Origin: an uncultured Collinsella sp.
GTDB lineage: Bacteria > Actinomycetota > Coriobacteriia > Coriobacteriales > Coriobacteriaceae
NCBI GenBank assembly: GCA_900555765.1
Contig: USMA01000088.1
Span: 1-5,458, forward strand
Length of the DNA stretch: 5,458 bases
Direction: 5' to 3'
Below are positions 1 through 5,440 of this stretch, piece after piece (position 1 is the stretch's first letter; the number at the start of each line of letters is the position of its first letter). A program made the position numbers and the translations under genes. Under the pieces are notes generated by a model. The model made no database searches, was not told the DNA's origin, and saw only the letters and a program-made list of their open reading frames with translations.

Positions 1-1249
1 ATGCCTGGAGACCGCGCTGGCCTGGGTGCGCTTTGAGGGCCTGGAGCTGGTGTTTTCGCAGTCTGCGCAGCTTAACGTGCTCGACTACCGCCTGCTGTAC
101 GTGGTACTGATCGGCACGCTGTATGGGCTCGATTTTGGCCTGGTTGCGGCGCTGCTGGCGTCGGTGGGTTTGGCCGCGAGCTACTTTACTCAGTACGGTT
201 ATACCTTCCAGGGTCTCTTTTACGAGCCGTCCAACTGGCTGCCGTTTATTGCGTACTTTGTGGTGGGTGCCGTGTGCGGCTATGTGCAGCTGCGCAACAG
301 CGAAGCCATTAGGGCGGAGCGCGATTTAAACGAGCTCGTGCGTAATCGCAATACGTTCCTCACACAGCTTTACCACGACGCGATCGAGGACAAGCGCGCG
401 TACAGGCGCCAGATTGTGGGTCGCCACGACAGCTTTGGCAAGATCTTTGCCGTGACGCAGGAGCTCGACGTACTCAACCCACGCGACATCTATCGCAAGT
501 GCTGCGAGCTTCTGGGCGAGATCCTCGAGAACGATTCGGTGGCGATCTACCATGTTTCGGGCGGGGCATTTGCACGCCTGGTGGCAGCAAGTCCCGCGAT
601 TGCCGAAGATGCCGCACGCTCGCTCACGCTTGAGCAGCTTGCACCTCTTTTGGGCGACGGGGGTCGTTCGAACCTGTGGGTGAACCGCGAGCTGACGCCG
701 GGGCTTCCCATGTTTGGATACACGATCGTGCGCGAAGGGGCACCCGCCGTGTTGATCTTTGTGCGTAGTGCGGCCGAAAACCAAATGACCCTCTATTATC
801 AAAACCTGTTCCGCATCTTGTGCGGCCTGGTCGAAAGCGCGCTGGGCCGTGCCTTTGACTATGAGGCGGTGGCACAGGATAAACGCTGCGTTGATGGCAC
901 TTGCGTGCTCAAGCAGGCCGCCTTTGGCCAAGAGCTCGCGGCGGAGCAGGCGCTGGCAGATAGCAAGATGGGGAGTTTTTTGCTCCTGCGCGTGGTACCG
1001 GGCATGGAGCCTGTCGGCGAGCTGGTGGGCGCAATTGGGTCGACAATCCGCGAGAGCGACGCGGCAGGCTTGGTCGACGGCGATGTGCTCTACCTGCTTA
1101 TGCGCCAGGCAAAGGCGTGCGATCTGCCCATTATCCGCGAGCGCCTGAGCGAAAAGCAGATTGAGGTGGAGCCCGTCGACGGCGAGGATATCGTGGCGCT
1201 GTTGCAGCACATCTCTTACACCGGTGACGGTGAGGGGGGTGCCGCTTGA
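1..1249 (+). CDS. pelD: PelD-like membrane c-di-GMP receptor with GAF and degenerate GGDEF domains (5' end outside window)
   Basis: The reading frame is open from position 2 (first codon TGC) to the TGA at 1247-1249, so the true start lies upstream; the GTG at 26 is only the first start-like codon. Residues are numbered from that GTG. Hydrophobic helices at about 20-54 and 69-90 (two or three passes) lead into a charged linker, likely coiled coil, at about 92-128. A GAF-like domain follows at about 133-285, then a degenerate GGDEF-like domain at about 288-398. In the last domain RESD (342-345) is followed after five residues by DGDVL (351-355), which is the inhibitory-site-to-GGDEF spacing of diguanylate cyclases. 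The GGDEF signature is lost, so this should be a c-di-GMP receptor and not an enzyme. PelD is known to activate Pel synthesis in the inner membrane on binding c-di-GMP, and the downstream pelE/pelA/pelF/pelG order supports the call. From memory, some Firmicute homologues carry an N-terminal epimerase-like domain; whether this one does cannot be seen. Confidence 0.85.
   Translation, partial: CLETALAWVRFEGLELVFSQSAQLNVLDYRLLYVVLIGTLYGLDFGLVAALLASVGLAASYFTQYGYTFQGLFYEPSNWLPFIAYFVVGAVCGYVQLRNSEAIRAERDLNELVRNRNTFLTQLYHDAIEDKRAYRRQIVGRHDSFGKIFAVTQELDVLNPRDIYRKCCELLGEILENDSVAIYHVSGGAFARLVAASPAIAEDAARSLTLEQLAPLLGDGGRSNLWVNRELTPGLPMFGYTIVREGAPAVLIFVRSAAENQMTLYYQNLFRILCGLVESALGRAFDYEAVAQDKRCVDGTCVLKQAAFGQELAAEQALADSKMGSFLLLRVVPGMEPVGELVGAIGSTIRESDAAGLVDGDVLYLLMRQAKACDLPIIRERLSEKQIEVEPVDGEDIVALLQHISYTGDGEGGAA
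1049..1090 (+). other. RxxD c-di-GMP site and degenerate GGDEF signature in PelD
   Basis: Codons 1049-1060 read R-E-S-D. After five codons (A-A-G-L-V), 1076-1090 read D-G-D-V-L, in the place of GGDEF. The spacing equals that of the classical I-site upstream of GGDEF. In PelD proteins that bind c-di-GMP, the RxxD arginine and aspartate contact the ligand. Actual binding here is inferred from the motif only. Confidence 0.7.
1232..1239 (+). promoter_or_regulatory. Ribosome binding site for pelE-like gene, supporting a TTG start
   Basis: A purine-rich GAGGGGGG run ends 6 bases before the TTG at 1246-1248. It lies inside the end of the pelD-like gene and supports the unusual TTG start, which overlaps the pelD stop as TTGA. 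The next in-frame ATG, at 1318, would cut off the first transmembrane helix. Confidence 0.65.
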
Positions 1250-2151
1250 TCTCGCTTGTCGTTGCTGCCGTCTTGCTGCTGATTCATGCGCTGGTTTGCC
1301 TGGTGCTGTGGACGCTCATGAAGTTGGGCCTGCTGCCGGTGCGCGGGCACATGCTGCCTGTGATAGTGCTGGTGCCGCTGTGGGGCCCGTTGCTGGTGGT
1401 TCTGCTATCGGTCTGCAGCGCGGTGTTTGGCGAGGGACTGAATGAGTCTGCGCTGGAGTCGCTGCGCTTCAACGACGACCTGCATCGCAGCATCTTAGTG
1501 CACGAACGTGATGCCGATGCAGGCGTGATCCCGCTCGAGGAGGCGCTCATCGTCAACGACCCGGCAGACCGGCGCCGCCTAATGCTCTCCATGCTCACCG
1601 AGGAGCCCGACGCGTACCTGGCGCAGCTGCAGGCGGCTAAGCTTAACGACGACGTTGAGGTGGCTCACTATGCCGCGACGGCGGTGGCGCAGATCTCCAA
1701 GGAGTCCGACCTTAAACTGCAGCAGCTGGAGCGTGCCTTTAAGACGGACCCGAGCGCGCAAAACCTCAACGAATACTGCGATTTTCTTGGTGTATACTTG
1801 GGCTCGGGCTTGGCTGAGGGGCGCGTGGCTCAGATTCAACGCCAACAGTACGCGCGCTTGCTTGCGCGTCGCTGCGAGCGCGAGGACACCCTTGAGCTTC
1901 GCATTCGATACGCGACGGCGCTGGCCGATGTCGGACAGATCGACGAGGCGCAGGCCGTGACCGACCAGCTGGTGCTCGACGTGCCCGAGGAGCAGGAGGT
2001 TTGGATGCTTTGCCTGCGCCTGGCGGTGATGCGCCGCGACGGTGACGAGGTCCACCGCGTGATCGATGCGATTGACAAACAGCATGTATACTTGAGCGCC
2101 GCCAACCGCGAGGAACTGGCGTTTTGGCGCAACGGAGAGGAGGCCCGATGA
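1246..2151 (+). CDS. pelE: PelE-like membrane-anchored helical-repeat protein
   Basis: This encodes 301 residues from a TTG start that overlaps the upstream stop (TTGA), with a good ribosome binding site at 1232-1239. Two hydrophobic helices at about residues 2-26 and 35-60 form a membrane hairpin. The rest (about 65-301) is a soluble, Ala/Leu/Glu-rich helical region of TPR or HEAT-like character, including the segment DDVEVAHYAATAV (about 133-145) and a TPR-like pair of helices near 215-250. No enzyme motif is visible. PelE of the Pel system is known as a membrane protein with a TPR domain that contacts PelD and helps assemble the synthase complex. The gene lies between the PelD-like and DUF2194 genes, as in Gram-positive pel clusters. 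The name rests on topology plus position, since repeat proteins diverge quickly. It ends in an ATGA overlap with the next gene. Confidence 0.78.
   Translation: MISLVVAAVLLLIHALVCLVLWTLMKLGLLPVRGHMLPVIVLVPLWGPLLVVLLSVCSAVFGEGLNESALESLRFNDDLHRSILVHERDADAGVIPLEEALIVNDPADRRRLMLSMLTEEPDAYLAQLQAAKLNDDVEVAHYAATAVAQISKESDLKLQQLERAFKTDPSAQNLNEYCDFLGVYLGSGLAEGRVAQIQRQQYARLLARRCEREDTLELRIRYATALADVGQIDEAQAVTDQLVLDVPEEQEVWMLCLRLAVMRRDGDEVHRVIDAIDKQHVYLSAANREELAFWRNGEEAR
2134..2143 (+). promoter_or_regulatory. Ribosome binding site for the DUF2194/PelA-like gene
   Basis: GGAGAGGAGG ends 4 bases before the ATG at 2148. It fixes the start at 2148, with the ATGA overlap on the pelE stop, in preference to the in-frame ATG at 2124, which lacks this placement and sits deeper in pelE. 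Confidence 0.7.
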
Positions 2152-3512
2152 GCGTGGTGCAGCATATCCGCGACCGTGCGGGCCATTTTCGCTGGATGGG
2201 GCTGCTTGTGGTGTGGGCGGTCTTTATTGCCATGGCGGCCGTGCTGCTGGTGGAGCGCGCCGGCGTGCAGTACAGTGCGGGCCAGCATAAGCTGGGGATG
2301 CTTGCCGCCAACGATGCGGTGCCGGCTTCCTCCGCAATATTTGGCCAAAAGCCCACGTGCCTGGTCATTACCGATTCCGACCAAGCTGGCGTCGAGGACG
2401 TAAAGGAGCAGTTTGACCAGATCCTGCTCGACATGAAGATCGCGCACCGCGACGTGGACCTTGCCCTGGACGGCGTGGATGCCATTCCCTCGCTGACCTC
2501 CTTCGATCGCGTGATTTTGCTCATGCCGTCGCTCGATGGGCTCGGTACGCACCTGAGTGACATTATGAGTTGGGTGAGTGCCGGTGGTTCGCTTATGCTC
2601 GCCATGCCTCCGGATAACTCGAGCTATCTGCAAGTAATTGCCCCCAAGCTTGGCATTGAATCGGCCGGATATGACTATGTAAAAGCCGAAAGCATTGTGC
2701 CGAGCGAGGACTTTATGCTGGGCGGGGGAGAGCGCTACGAGCTCTCGGACCCCTTCGATTCGTCGCTTTCGGTTTCGCTGCGCGAGACGGCTCGTGTGTG
2801 GGCTAAGACCGGCGATGCGGGCGCCCCGCTCATTTGGTCGAATGACTGCGGTAGCGGGCGCACCGTGGTATGCAATATCGGTATCTATGACAAGGTTATG
2901 CGCGGTTTTTACGCCGCGGCGATCAGCCTGCTGGGCGATGCCACGGCCTATCCGGTCATCAACAGCGCCGTTTTCTACCTAGACGACTTTCCCAGCCCCG
3001 TGCCCTCGGGCGATGGCACCTACATCAAGCGCGACTACGGGCTTTCCATTGCCGATTTTTACACCAAGGTTTGGTGGCCCGATCTGCAAAAGCTCGCGCA
3101 AAAATATGGCATTCGCTTTACCGGCGTGATGATCGAAAACTACGAGGACGCGGTCAACCAGACCGAGCCCGCGCGCCAGGCCGATACCACGCAGTTCCGC
3201 TACTTTGGCGGCATGCTGCTGCAGATGGGCGGAGAGCTGGGCTTTCACGGCTACAACCATCAGCCTCTGGCGCTCTGGGATACCGACTATGGCAAGCTGT
3301 ACGACTACAAGACGTGGAAGAACGAGGAAACGCTCGTCGCGTCGCTCAACGAGCTCATCGCCTTTCAGGACGAGGTGCTGCCCAACGCGCACGGCTCGGG
3401 CTATGTGCCACCGTCGAATATCCTTTCGGCCCGTGCGCGCAAGCTTATTGGCACCGACGTTCCGCGCATTAAGACCATCGCCAGTACGTATTTTGAGGAT
3501 GGCACCGTCTAG
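2148..3512 (+). CDS. PelA-deacetylase-like DUF2194 protein, N-terminal part, ended by a premature amber codon
   Basis: The start at 2148 has a strong ribosome binding site and overlaps the pelE stop. The frame stops at TAG 3510-3512 after 454 residues, but the same frame runs on to 4028; without the stop the protein would be 626 residues, about the usual length for DUF2194 proteins as I recall. Residues 17-36 are a single membrane anchor or uncleaved signal. About 50-190 resembles a Rossmann/glutamine-amidotransferase-like (ThuA-like) fold with strands such as CLVITDSD and VILLMPSLD. About 270 to the stop is a polysaccharide deacetylase (CE4/NodB-like) domain: paired aspartates D279-D280 in YLDDFPSP and the metal-binding pair H367/H371 in HGYNH, the H-x3-H spacing seen in Pel/CE4 deacetylases. 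The family role is extracytoplasmic N-deacetylation of the Pel polymer. Cutting here should leave the domain unfinished, so the product is probably inactive unless the stop is read through or is a sequencing error. Confidence 0.85.
   Translation: MSVVQHIRDRAGHFRWMGLLVVWAVFIAMAAVLLVERAGVQYSAGQHKLGMLAANDAVPASSAIFGQKPTCLVITDSDQAGVEDVKEQFDQILLDMKIAHRDVDLALDGVDAIPSLTSFDRVILLMPSLDGLGTHLSDIMSWVSAGGSLMLAMPPDNSSYLQVIAPKLGIESAGYDYVKAESIVPSEDFMLGGGERYELSDPFDSSLSVSLRETARVWAKTGDAGAPLIWSNDCGSGRTVVCNIGIYDKVMRGFYAAAISLLGDATAYPVINSAVFYLDDFPSPVPSGDGTYIKRDYGLSIADFYTKVWWPDLQKLAQKYGIRFTGVMIENYEDAVNQTEPARQADTTQFRYFGGMLLQMGGELGFHGYNHQPLALWDTDYGKLYDYKTWKNEETLVASLNELIAFQDEVLPNAHGSGYVPPSNILSARARKLIGTDVPRIKTIASTYFEDGTV
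3510..3512 (+). other. In-frame amber (TAG) codon splitting the deacetylase gene
   Basis: The frame set by the ATG at 2148 reads D-G-T-V-stop-P-H-V-Q-E. Both flanks read in the same frame, so no frameshift is needed: one base substitution explains the stop (for example TAC or TAT for Tyr, CAG for Gln, or TGG for Trp). It falls at codon 455 of an expected 626. No other gene in the window ends in TAG (three TGA, one TAA). Confidence 0.9.
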
Positions 3513-4028
3513 CCCCATGTGCAGGAGATAGGCGAGGCGCGCGATGGCATTGTGGAGCAGCCACGTATTGTCTCGGGCGGCATGGTCAACGATTCCTATA
3601 TGCGTCTGGCAGCCGTGTCCGAGCTCAACATGCACTACGTGAGTACGCACTTTATGCACCCGGATGATCTGCTCGATCCCGATCGCGGCGCCAAGGAGGG
3701 CTGGGAGGTCTACAAGGGCGGTCTGACCAACTACCTGGAGTGGCTTACCAAGTCTGCGCCCGACCTGCGGCGCCAGACCGGTTCGGAATGCTCGGGCGCC
3801 ATCCAGCGCTTTTCGTCCGTGACGGTGAGCGTGGATACAAGTGCGGATGCCTGGACGCTCAGCCTGGGCAATTTCCACGACGAGGCGTGGCTCATGTTCC
3901 GCGCCAACAACGGTGAGCCCGGTGCAGTCACGGGTGGCGAGATTACGCATCTGACGGGCGACCTGTACCTGGTCAAAGCCACGGACAAGACGGTGACCAT
4001 TGCACGCAAGGAGGGTGGCGACAAATGA
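3513..4028 (+). pseudogene. DUF2194/PelA-deacetylase-like gene, C-terminal part cut off by the amber codon
   Basis: This is the continuation of the gene starting at 2148, in the same frame and ending at TGA 4026-4028 (171 codons). It begins mid-domain and has no convincing start: the GTG at 3519 has no Shine-Dalgarno sequence in front of it, because upstream lies the body of the same domain. It keeps the end of the deacetylase barrel, including THFMHPDDL with histidines at codons 501 and 504 of the joined protein. After this comes a segment ending near SGAIQRFSSV, then a beta-rich tail of about 75 residues. Third positions stay GC-rich and there is no further stop, so decay, if real, is recent. 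If translated alone it would lack the membrane anchor, D279/D280 and H367/H371, and could not work as a deacetylase. Confidence 0.75.
4008..4014 (+). promoter_or_regulatory. Ribosome binding site for pelF
   Basis: A perfect AAGGAGG lies 10 bases before the ATG at 4025, inside the last codons of the DUF2194 gene. This strong site could let pelF be translated even if ribosomes leave at the upstream amber codon. Confidence 0.75.
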
Positions 4029-5440
4029 GAATCTGCTTGGTACTCGAGGGTTGCTACCCCTATGTGCACGGCGGCGTGTCCACCTGGATGCACGGCTACA
4101 TACAGGCCATGCCCGAGCACGAGTTTGTGCTGTGGGTGATTGGCGCGCATGCTGTCGACCGCGGCAAGTTTGTCTACGAGCTGCCCGGCAACGTGGTCGA
4201 GGTGCACGAGGTGTTTCTGGACGACGCCCTGCGCCTATCGGGCGAGCAAGAAGAGGCCGACTTTAACGCCCGCGAGCGCGAGGCGCTGCGCCGCCTGGTG
4301 TCGCTCTCCAATCCGGACTGGGACGTGCTATTCGATATCTTCCAGCGCCGTCGCGTGCATCCGCTCTCGTTTTTGCAGAGTCGCGCCTTTATGGATATCT
4401 TTCGCGACGTGTGCCTGGCCGAGTACCCATACACGCCCTTTGCCGATGCATTCCACACCATGCGCTCCATGCTGCTGCCCGTGCTCTACCTTCTGGGCAG
4501 CGAGGTGCCGGTGGCCGATGTGTACCACGCCATCTCGACCGGCTACGGTGGCCTGCTCGCCTGCCTGGGCTCAAGCGTTCACCATGCGCCGGTGCTGCTG
4601 ACCGAGCATGGCATCTATACTCGCGAACGCGAGGAAGAGATCATTCGCGCTGACTGGGTGGTGCCGTCGTTTAAGGACCGCTGGATCCGCTTTTTCTACC
4701 TGCTTTCGGAGGAGATCTACCGTCGCGCCTTCCGCGTGACCAGTTTGTTCCATAACGCCCGCAAGACGCAGATCGATATGGGCTGCGATGCGGACAAATG
4801 CCTGGTCATCCCCAACGGCATCCAGTTCGACCGCTTTAAGGACATTCCCTTAAAGCCCGATGACGGCTGGGTGGACATTGGCGCGGTGGTGCGCCTGGCG
4901 CCCATCAAGGACGTCAAGACCATGATCTACGCTTTCTTTGAGCTGGCCTCCCGGGTACCCAACGTCCGTCTCCACATCATTGGCGGCGTGGACGATGAGG
5001 GTTACGCCAACGAGTGCTATGCGCTGGTGGAGCAATTGCAGATCAAAAATCTGCTCTTCACCGGCCGTGTGGACGTGGTGCAGTATATGCAGAAACTGGA
5101 TTTCACCATCCTCACCAGCATCTCGGAGGGGCAGCCACTCTCGGTGCTGGAATCCATGGCGGCCCGCCGCCCCTGCGTGACCACCGAGGTGGGCTGCTGC
5201 CGGGAGCTGCTGGAGGGCGCCCCCGGGGACACCTTTGGCATTGCGGGCTACTGCGTGCCGCCCATGTACCGCCAGGGCCTGGCCGACGCTATGGAAAAGA
5301 TGTGCGCCAGCCGTGCCCGCCGGGAGGAGATGGGCCGCATTGGACAGAGACGAGTGGACGCCTACTTCCACCACGAGCAGATGCTGGCCAACTACCAGAA
5401 AATGTACGACGAAACCGCAAAAGAATATCACTTGGAGTAA
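4025..5440 (+). CDS. pelF: PelF, GT4-family glycosyltransferase of Pel polysaccharide synthesis
   Basis: This encodes 471 residues from ATG 4025 (ATGA overlap, strong ribosome binding site) to TAA 5438-5440. PelF is the cytosolic, nucleotide-sugar-dependent transferase thought to build the GalNAc/GalN-type Pel chain and hand it to PelG for export. The N-terminus has the PelF-family opening (DUF3492) with ICLVLEGCYPYVHGGVSTW, where the Gly-rich loop G16-G17-V-S-T-W is typical. The GT4 C-terminal half shows PNGIQFDRF (about 260-268), R290 and K295 in VVRLAPIKD (the usual phosphate-contacting Arg and Lys), and the E-x7-E motif with E368 and E376 in SEGQPLSVLE. There is no membrane segment, as expected. 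The protein looks complete with all key residues. Codon choice changes after about 4945 (AAA for Lys, CGG for Arg), so the 3' third may have another origin. Confidence in the family is high; the exact sugar is family knowledge only. Confidence 0.93.
   Translation: MRICLVLEGCYPYVHGGVSTWMHGYIQAMPEHEFVLWVIGAHAVDRGKFVYELPGNVVEVHEVFLDDALRLSGEQEEADFNAREREALRRLVSLSNPDWDVLFDIFQRRRVHPLSFLQSRAFMDIFRDVCLAEYPYTPFADAFHTMRSMLLPVLYLLGSEVPVADVYHAISTGYGGLLACLGSSVHHAPVLLTEHGIYTREREEEIIRADWVVPSFKDRWIRFFYLLSEEIYRRAFRVTSLFHNARKTQIDMGCDADKCLVIPNGIQFDRFKDIPLKPDDGWVDIGAVVRLAPIKDVKTMIYAFFELASRVPNVRLHIIGGVDDEGYANECYALVEQLQIKNLLFTGRVDVVQYMQKLDFTILTSISEGQPLSVLESMAARRPCVTTEVGCCRELLEGAPGDTFGIAGYCVPPMYRQGLADAMEKMCASRARREEMGRIGQRRVDAYFHHEQMLANYQKMYDETAKEYHLE
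5434..5437 (+). promoter_or_regulatory. Ribosome binding site for pelG
   Basis: GGAG, embedded in the last codons of pelF, ends 6 bases before the ATG at 5444. Confidence 0.55.

What the first reader, a model, noticed from the sequence alone, without database searches (positions are those of the whole stretch)
3510..3512. Single amber codon cuts the Pel deacetylase-like gene inside its catalytic domain
The frame from 2148 is intact on both sides of TAG 3510-3512 and keeps family-like sequence to 4028, where it ends in the expected ATGA overlap with pelF. The upstream part keeps D279/D280 and H367/H371. The downstream part holds the THFMHPDD segment and the C-terminal tail. Options are a recent loss-of-function mutation (a strain making fully acetylated Pel or none), a reversible phase-like nonsense allele, amber suppression, or a base-calling error. 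Loss of deacetylation would alter polymer charge and adhesion, so a natural knockout within an otherwise intact operon would be informative.
Basis: partly seen in the sequence, partly recalled or inferred. Interest (0 to 1): 0.72.

Follow-up and report, generated by a model that had tools for sequence, protein, structure and literature searches.

The report
Artefact stop in chimeric Collinsella contig
The stop codon that cuts this predicted biofilm-polymer gene of a gut bacterium sits inside a 33-base cluster of one-off changes, on a contig whose end does not match its relatives, so it is likely a sequencing or assembly error rather than a natural knockout.

Summary
TAG 3510-3512 is in the sequence and splits a DUF2194 (PF09960) gene, PelA_DA-like, after residue 454. 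The DNA is Collinsella aerofaciens-like. The codon is sense in 11 of 12 distinct segments of relatives (the twelfth, from a distant gene, could not be aligned), and 0 of 114 full-length homologues stop there. Evidence for an artefact: (1) the TAG is one of seven changes within 33 bases (3508-3540) found in none of 12 relatives' genes; apart from the stop, 5 of 6 alter the protein, all five at columns invariant in 114 homologues. (2) The contig is a hybrid: past 4930 it drops to 70-75% identity to all ten Collinsella loci, while its PelF tail is 97-99% identical to another PelF lineage. Against: no reads were available, clusters of differences also occur in some relatives, and 48 cluster members could not be inspected. 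Amber suppression is unlikely, since pelF, the next gene, ends in TAG in 10 of 10 loci. A real recent null allele remains possible; reads would decide.

The parts
2..1249 (+). PelD-like protein, cut at its 5' end by the contig edge
   Evidence: Open frame; weak sub-threshold DUF4118 (E 1.3e-05, 25.3 bits against cut-off 28.4). Named PelD by position in the operon: inference.
1246..2151 (+). PelE-like TPR protein
   Evidence: Open frame; sub-threshold TPR match. Named PelE by position: inference.
2148..3509 (+). 5' piece of the DUF2194 / PelA_DA-like deacetylase gene (454 codons; carries D279/D280 and H367/H371)
   Evidence: PF09960 E 1.3e-118; 9ZAU E 1.8e-43.
3510..3512 (+). Amber codon TAG in place of a sense codon
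   Evidence: Sense in 11 of 12 distinct segments of relatives, the twelfth not alignable; column 455 has one residue kind and no stop in 114 of 114 full-length homologues.
3508..3540 (+). Tract of seven private substitutions (3508, 3511, 3516, 3528, 3530, 3535, 3540), likely sequencing or assembly error
   Evidence: against 12 relatives; residues 454, 457, 461, 463, 465 at invariant columns; 0 of 7 window alleles in each of the 11 alignable segments.
3513..4028 (+). 3' piece of the DUF2194 gene with its stop codon (carries R473, H504 and D507, equivalents of B. cereus R458, H488 and D491)
   Evidence: PF09960 E 3.7e-43; 9ZAU E 5.1e-09; positions of R473 and H504.
4025..4929 (+). pelF, Collinsella-like part
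   Evidence: NCBIfam PelF NF038011 E 6.4e-96 for the whole ORF; Collinsella-like up to 4929, with exact runs ending there of 107 bases in L009 and 101 in L002 and L003, 8-56 in the other seven loci.
4930..5440 (+). pelF, part matching another lineage (hybrid tail)
   Evidence: 70-75% identity to all ten Collinsella loci in 5001-5400; 13 private differences in 4930-4996; residues 300-471 are 97-99% identical to P0001-P0016, whose N-terminal parts are 56-80% identical to the window's except P0010 at 90% (first 60 of the 120 proteins listed).

Best explanation
The amber codon is likely a sequencing or assembly error in a Collinsella aerofaciens-like contig whose pelF end matches another lineage, not a natural allele of the Pel deacetylase gene. 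Shown: the TAG is one of seven changes within 33 bases that none of the 12 compared relatives carries, and the same contig changes to another PelF lineage at about 4930. Inferred: the window is a whole metagenome contig, this stretch rests on one or few poor reads of a low-abundance strain, and the assembler joined two species through conserved pelF sequence. In the living strain the gene is presumably one intact 626-codon frame, whose product would deacetylate Pel as B. cereus PelA_DA does (inferred by homology).
For: Seven private changes in 33 bp: of the 6 outside the stop, 5 are nonsynonymous, 5 are transversions and 6 hit sites invariant in 12 relatives; the gene's other 13 private changes are 10 synonymous and 3 nonsynonymous, 8 transitions and 5 transversions. 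The most private nonsynonymous changes at invariant sites in any 35 bp is 6 in the window (stop included) and 0-3 in the 12 relatives. At protein level, five private residues lie at columns 454-465, each invariant in 114 of 114 homologues; leaving each homologue out in turn, the largest cluster in 12 residues was 3, in 1 of 114. Uniform placement of 39 private sites gave a 6-in-30-bp cluster in 2 of 20,000 draws (it ignores that sites differ in rate). Hybrid contig. The fragment's row in the protein search names one contig of 5458 bases, the window's own length. A review says that shared k-mers or sequencing errors can lead metagenome assemblers to chimeric contigs (PMC7299287, passages).
Against: No reads, coverage or base qualities were available, so error was not observed. 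The row for the 454-residue fragment stands for a 90% cluster of 48 member sequences, which I could not inspect; some might end at the same place. The join at 4930 lies 1.4 kb away and does not by itself make 3510 wrong. Raw clusters of 5-14 private differences per 30 bp occur in L004, L006, L007, L008 and L009, and in the gene L009 reaches 10 in 35 bp. Private changes in relatives are less synonymous than one would like: summed over the 12, 206 synonymous to 119 nonsynonymous and 196 transitions to 129 transversions, and in 5 of 12 nonsynonymous outnumber synonymous. One homologue has 10 private residues in all, more than the window's 8. Nonsynonymous share inside against outside the cluster: Fisher p = 0.068. 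Assemblers usually drop k-mers seen once (recalled).
Confidence: 0.8

Rival explanations
1. A real, recent null allele in one Collinsella strain: one mutational event altered several bases at 3508-3540 and created the stop, leaving the strain without PelA_DA and so presumably without Pel.
For: The frame is open and mostly under constraint on both sides (against L002: 44 synonymous and 11 nonsynonymous before the tract, 13 and 6 after it; against L005 76 and 16, then 20 and 12), which fits a recent event. The stop comes before the equivalents of R458, H488 and D491, so the product would be inactive. The 48 members of the fragment's cluster were not inspected.
Against: The codon is sense in all 11 alignable distinct segments, no stop at column 455 in 114 of 114 full-length homologues, and none of the 11 matching genomes, of 43 searched in L002's genus, has a stop inside. 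No template for the tract (10 bases or more over two or more private sites) was found in the window; the longest such match in five relatives was 11 bases.
Confidence: 0.15
2. Amber suppression or recoding: TAG is read as an amino acid and the full protein is made.
For: The frame continues with family-like sequence to 4028.
Against: pelF, the next gene, ends in TAG in 10 of 10 Collinsella loci; the 11 alignable segments have a sense codon at 3510. No tRNA gene lies in the window, but no whole genome is held, so suppressor tRNAs could not be looked for.
Confidence: 0.02
3. A reversible, phase-variable nonsense allele.
For: None found.
Against: No tandem repeat in 3300-3740 and no direct or inverted repeat of 11 bases or more in 3350-3700; the changes are scattered substitutions, not a length change or inversion.
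Confidence: 0.01
4. A short gene-conversion tract from a distant DUF2194 gene.
For: A cluster of changes can come from recombination.
Against: A distant donor would be expected to bring many synonymous differences; apart from the stop the tract has 1 synonymous against 5 nonsynonymous private changes. No systematic search for a donor was made.
Confidence: 0.02

Closest known systems
Bacillus cereus PelA_DA (CE26/CBM114; PDB 9ZAU), DUF2194/PF09960
   Same: Sequence match over both pieces; DD, HxxxH, PRI and HPDD motifs in the same order; gene lies before pelF in a pel operon.
   Different: The window's copy is cut by TAG before the equivalents of R458, H488 and D491.
Gram-positive pelDEA_DAFG operon (PMC7112168, passages)
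   Same: DUF2194 then PelF in the window, after two genes named PelD-like and PelE-like by position; PelG and then CotH follow in relative L001. The paper reports the core locus in actinobacteria too.
   Different: The window's pelF ends in sequence matching another lineage.
Chimeric contigs of short-read metagenome assembly (PMC7299287, passages)
   Same: Join inside conserved sequence (exact runs of up to 107 bases to Collinsella before it); the two parts match different lineages.
   Different: Reads not seen, so the assembler's path was not traced; that the window is a short-read assembly is inferred.

Membership tests
PelA_DA / DUF2194 (PF09960) | Significant match to the family profile | tested here: met
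   Both pieces above the cut-off (397.4 and 148.2 bits against 30.4).
PelA_DA / DUF2194 (PF09960) | MT1 Asp-Asp and MT2 HxxxH | tested here: met
   D279/D280 and H367/H371 align with D262/D263 and H350/H354.
PelA_DA / DUF2194 (PF09960) | Base-coordinating Arg and MT5 catalytic His followed by Asp | tested here: met
   R473, H504 and D507 present in the DNA, but only after the TAG.
PelA_DA / DUF2194 (PF09960) | One uninterrupted reading frame | tested here: not met
   TAG 3510-3512.
PelA_DA / DUF2194 (PF09960) | Deacetylase activity on GalNAc oligomers | not testable with these tools
   No assay.
Naturally split DUF2194 gene | Relatives end at the same place with a separate downstream gene | tested here: not met
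   0 of 119 other listed homologues (of 3069 found) end at 454: 114 have 626 aa, four 624-625, one 531. Of 64 of the 107 C-terminal fragments examined, alignment starts scatter over residues 322-515; one (75% identical) starts at 455 and seven start at 463, two of these (P0244, P0245) on 22-kb contigs. What lies upstream of those fragments was not seen.
Phase-variable nonsense allele | Repeat at the site | tested here: not met
Sequencing or assembly artefact | Allele absent from independent copies | tested here: met
   Absent from the copies compared; the exact 27-base pattern has 0 matches in viral contigs. The 48 members of cluster P0121 were not inspected.
Sequencing or assembly artefact | Read support low or mixed | not testable with these tools
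   No reads held.
Amber recoding | TAG not used as the normal stop in the organism | tested here: not met
   pelF ends in TAG in 10 of 10 loci of relatives; TAG ends 14 of 36 long frames kept in five loci, a rough count that includes some antisense frames.

The most novel reading that the evidence does not exclude
A gut Collinsella strain carries a real PelA_DA null made by a single multi-base mutation burst of 3508-3540, a Pel-minus variant living among Pel-makers in the same gut.
Probability: 0.13. Interest if true: 0.35.

Novelty: not a real feature. Interest (0 to 1): 0.08.

Why it matters
It is a caution: a stop codon in a contig should not be read as a natural knockout before its neighbourhood is checked for private, protein-altering changes and for hybrid joins. 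The useful positive result is that a pelDEA_DAFG-type operon with an intact PelA_DA gene is present in part of Collinsella (10 of 43 genomes of L002's genus hold a 90-97% identical gene, 0 with a stop inside); the core locus was already reported for actinobacteria in general (PMC7112168, passages). If the allele were real, it would be a natural test of what Pel loss costs a gut commensal.

Tried and rejected
Own genome: none held. Naturally split gene: not supported. Template-switch origin of the tract: no copy of it in the window; longest match in five relatives 11 bases. Repeats for phase variation: none. Exact tract pattern in viral contigs: 0. NCBIfam gave no family for the PelD-like, PelG and CotH proteins of L001 or for the intact DUF2194 protein P0122. 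No structure prediction was made, because a solved relative (9ZAU) was found. Papers: PMC13254593, PMC7112168 and PMC7299287 were seen as search listings and passages only; one search was a listing only. A search for 'Collinsella aerofaciens' with 'pel operon' found 0 papers; this covers those words in the held library only.

Full report
WHAT WAS CHECKED. The TAG at 3510-3512 is there, in frame with ATG 2148; the frame is open on both sides and ends at TGA 4026-4028, overlapping the pelF start at 4025. Both pieces belong to DUF2194: PF09960 positions 2-426 and 433-582. By sequence the only solved relative found (E up to 1) is PDB 9ZAU, which is Bacillus cereus PelA_DA. Aligning each piece apart to it puts D279/D280 and H367/H371 on D262/D263 and H350/H354, and places R473, H504 and D507, the equivalents of R458, H488 and D491, after the stop (chain numbers plus 25, counted by hand; for window positions). 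If real, the stop would remove the catalytic acid, the base-coordinating arginine and the C-terminal part. Catalytic activity of B. cereus PelA_DA is required for Pel biosynthesis (PMC13254593, passages), so such a strain would be expected to be Pel-minus, not to make fully acetylated Pel.

WHERE IT COMES FROM. The closest named records are Collinsella aerofaciens and Collinsella sp. (10 loci, 88-98% protein identity in the best segment). The window has no whole genome. The row for its 454-residue fragment names one contig, 5458 bases long, the window's own length, so I take the window to be a whole metagenome contig (inference). The same row stands for a 90% cluster of 48 member sequences, which I could not inspect. 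In relative L001 the operon continues with PelG and a CotH protein.

IS THE STOP SHARED? Not in anything I could compare. Loci L001-L033 give 12 distinct segments; the codon is sense in 11, and the twelfth, from the 31% identical gene of L033, could not be aligned. Of 43 genomes in L002's genus, 11 have a match to the intact protein P0122 (ten at 90-97% identity, one at 31%), 0 with a stop inside. One search found 3069 homologues and listed 120, one of them the window; of the other 119, 114 have 626 residues, and column 455 holds one and the same residue kind in all 114. The five of other length (three of 624, one of 625, one of 531) were not tallied, but all are longer than 454 residues. Among 64 of 107 C-terminal fragments, one starts at residue 455 and seven at 463, two of these on 22-kb contigs; a start codon near 463 may explain the seven (inference), but some of these genes may be broken upstream too.

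THE TRACT. Against 12 intact relatives the window's gene has 20 private sites. Seven lie within 33 bases: 3508, 3511, 3516, 3528, 3530, 3535, 3540. Leaving out the stop, 5 of 6 change the amino acid, 5 of 6 are transversions and 6 of 6 hit sites invariant in the relatives. The other 13 are 10 synonymous and 3 nonsynonymous, 8 transitions and 5 transversions. All nine private nonsynonymous changes at invariant sites, the stop included, fall in 3295-3729. In any 35 bases the window reaches 6 such changes, the 12 relatives 0 to 3. At protein level the window has 8 private residues, five of them at columns 454-465 that are invariant in 114 homologues; in leave-one-out controls the median is 1 private residue, the most is 10, and the largest cluster within 12 residues is 3, in 1 of 114. 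This fits random base errors better than slow divergence, and import from a distant gene would be expected to bring synonymous changes too.

WHAT SPEAKS AGAINST. Private changes in the relatives are not strongly synonymous: summed over the 12 rows, 206 synonymous to 119 nonsynonymous and 196 transitions to 129 transversions, and in 5 of 12 rows nonsynonymous ones outnumber synonymous ones. Counting all differences, five of ten relatives (L004, L006-L009) reach 5-14 private sites in 30 bases, and L009 reaches 10 in 35 bases of the gene. The Fisher test on nonsynonymous share inside and outside the cluster gave p = 0.068. The 2-in-20,000 figure for the cluster assumes uniform placement. So the case rests on the combination of clustering, invariant columns and the hybrid contig, not on one test.

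THE HYBRID. From 1 to 4800 the window is 70-100% identical per 200 bases to the Collinsella loci, 88-91% in 4801-5000, and 70-75% to all ten in 5001-5400; the last 18 aligned bases are 78-83%. The first private difference of the tail is at 4930, after exact runs of 107 bases to L009 and 101 to L002 and L003. PelF residues 300-471 are 97-99% identical to those of P0001-P0016, whose first parts are 56-80% identical to the window's except P0010 (90%) (which compared the first 60 of 120 listed proteins). P0010 carries a Collinsella-like start and the same tail with an earlier switch point (read by eye), so hybrids of these two lineages arise more than once; whether by assembly or by recombination is not known. 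Collinsella pelF is 475 codons and ends in TAG in 10 of 10 loci; the window's has 471 and ends in TAA.

RIVALS. Suppression is disfavoured because TAG ends the next gene of this operon in all ten relatives. Phase variation is disfavoured because no repeat was found. A naturally split gene is disfavoured. A real recent null cannot be excluded without reads: constraint is kept on both sides of the tract, somewhat weaker after it (against L002 44 synonymous and 11 nonsynonymous before, 13 and 6 after), which fits both an artefact and a recent event.

VERDICT. Most likely this is an error tract in a chimeric metagenome contig (0.80), with a real strain-level null at 0.15.

Noticed in passing
4930-5440: The pelF ORF is a hybrid: Collinsella-like start and a tail matching another lineage, joined inside conserved sequence.
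   Followed up: partly
1-4800: The best-matching relative changes along the window: L010 at 1-1000 (97-100% per 200 bases), L002 (with L001 or L003) at about 2001-3000, L002 at 3801-4600 (98-99%). Strain recombination or a mixed-strain consensus.
   Followed up: no
P0037, P0039: 593-residue proteins that carry PF09960 (DUF2194) and a PelF-like tail (P0037 seen): further possible chimeras of pel operon genes.
   Followed up: no
P0010: A Collinsella-like PelF start joined to the same foreign tail at an earlier point than in the window.
   Followed up: partly
P0244, P0245: 164-residue C-terminal DUF2194 fragments that start at residue 463, on 22-kb contigs; why the upstream part is missing was not seen.
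   Followed up: no
L001:10810-12609: A CotH kinase gene (PF08757) follows pelG in Collinsella.
   Followed up: no
L033: One genome of L002's genus (G015) holds a distant DUF2194 relative, 31% identical over residues 24-562, in a 1098-residue open frame.
   Followed up: no
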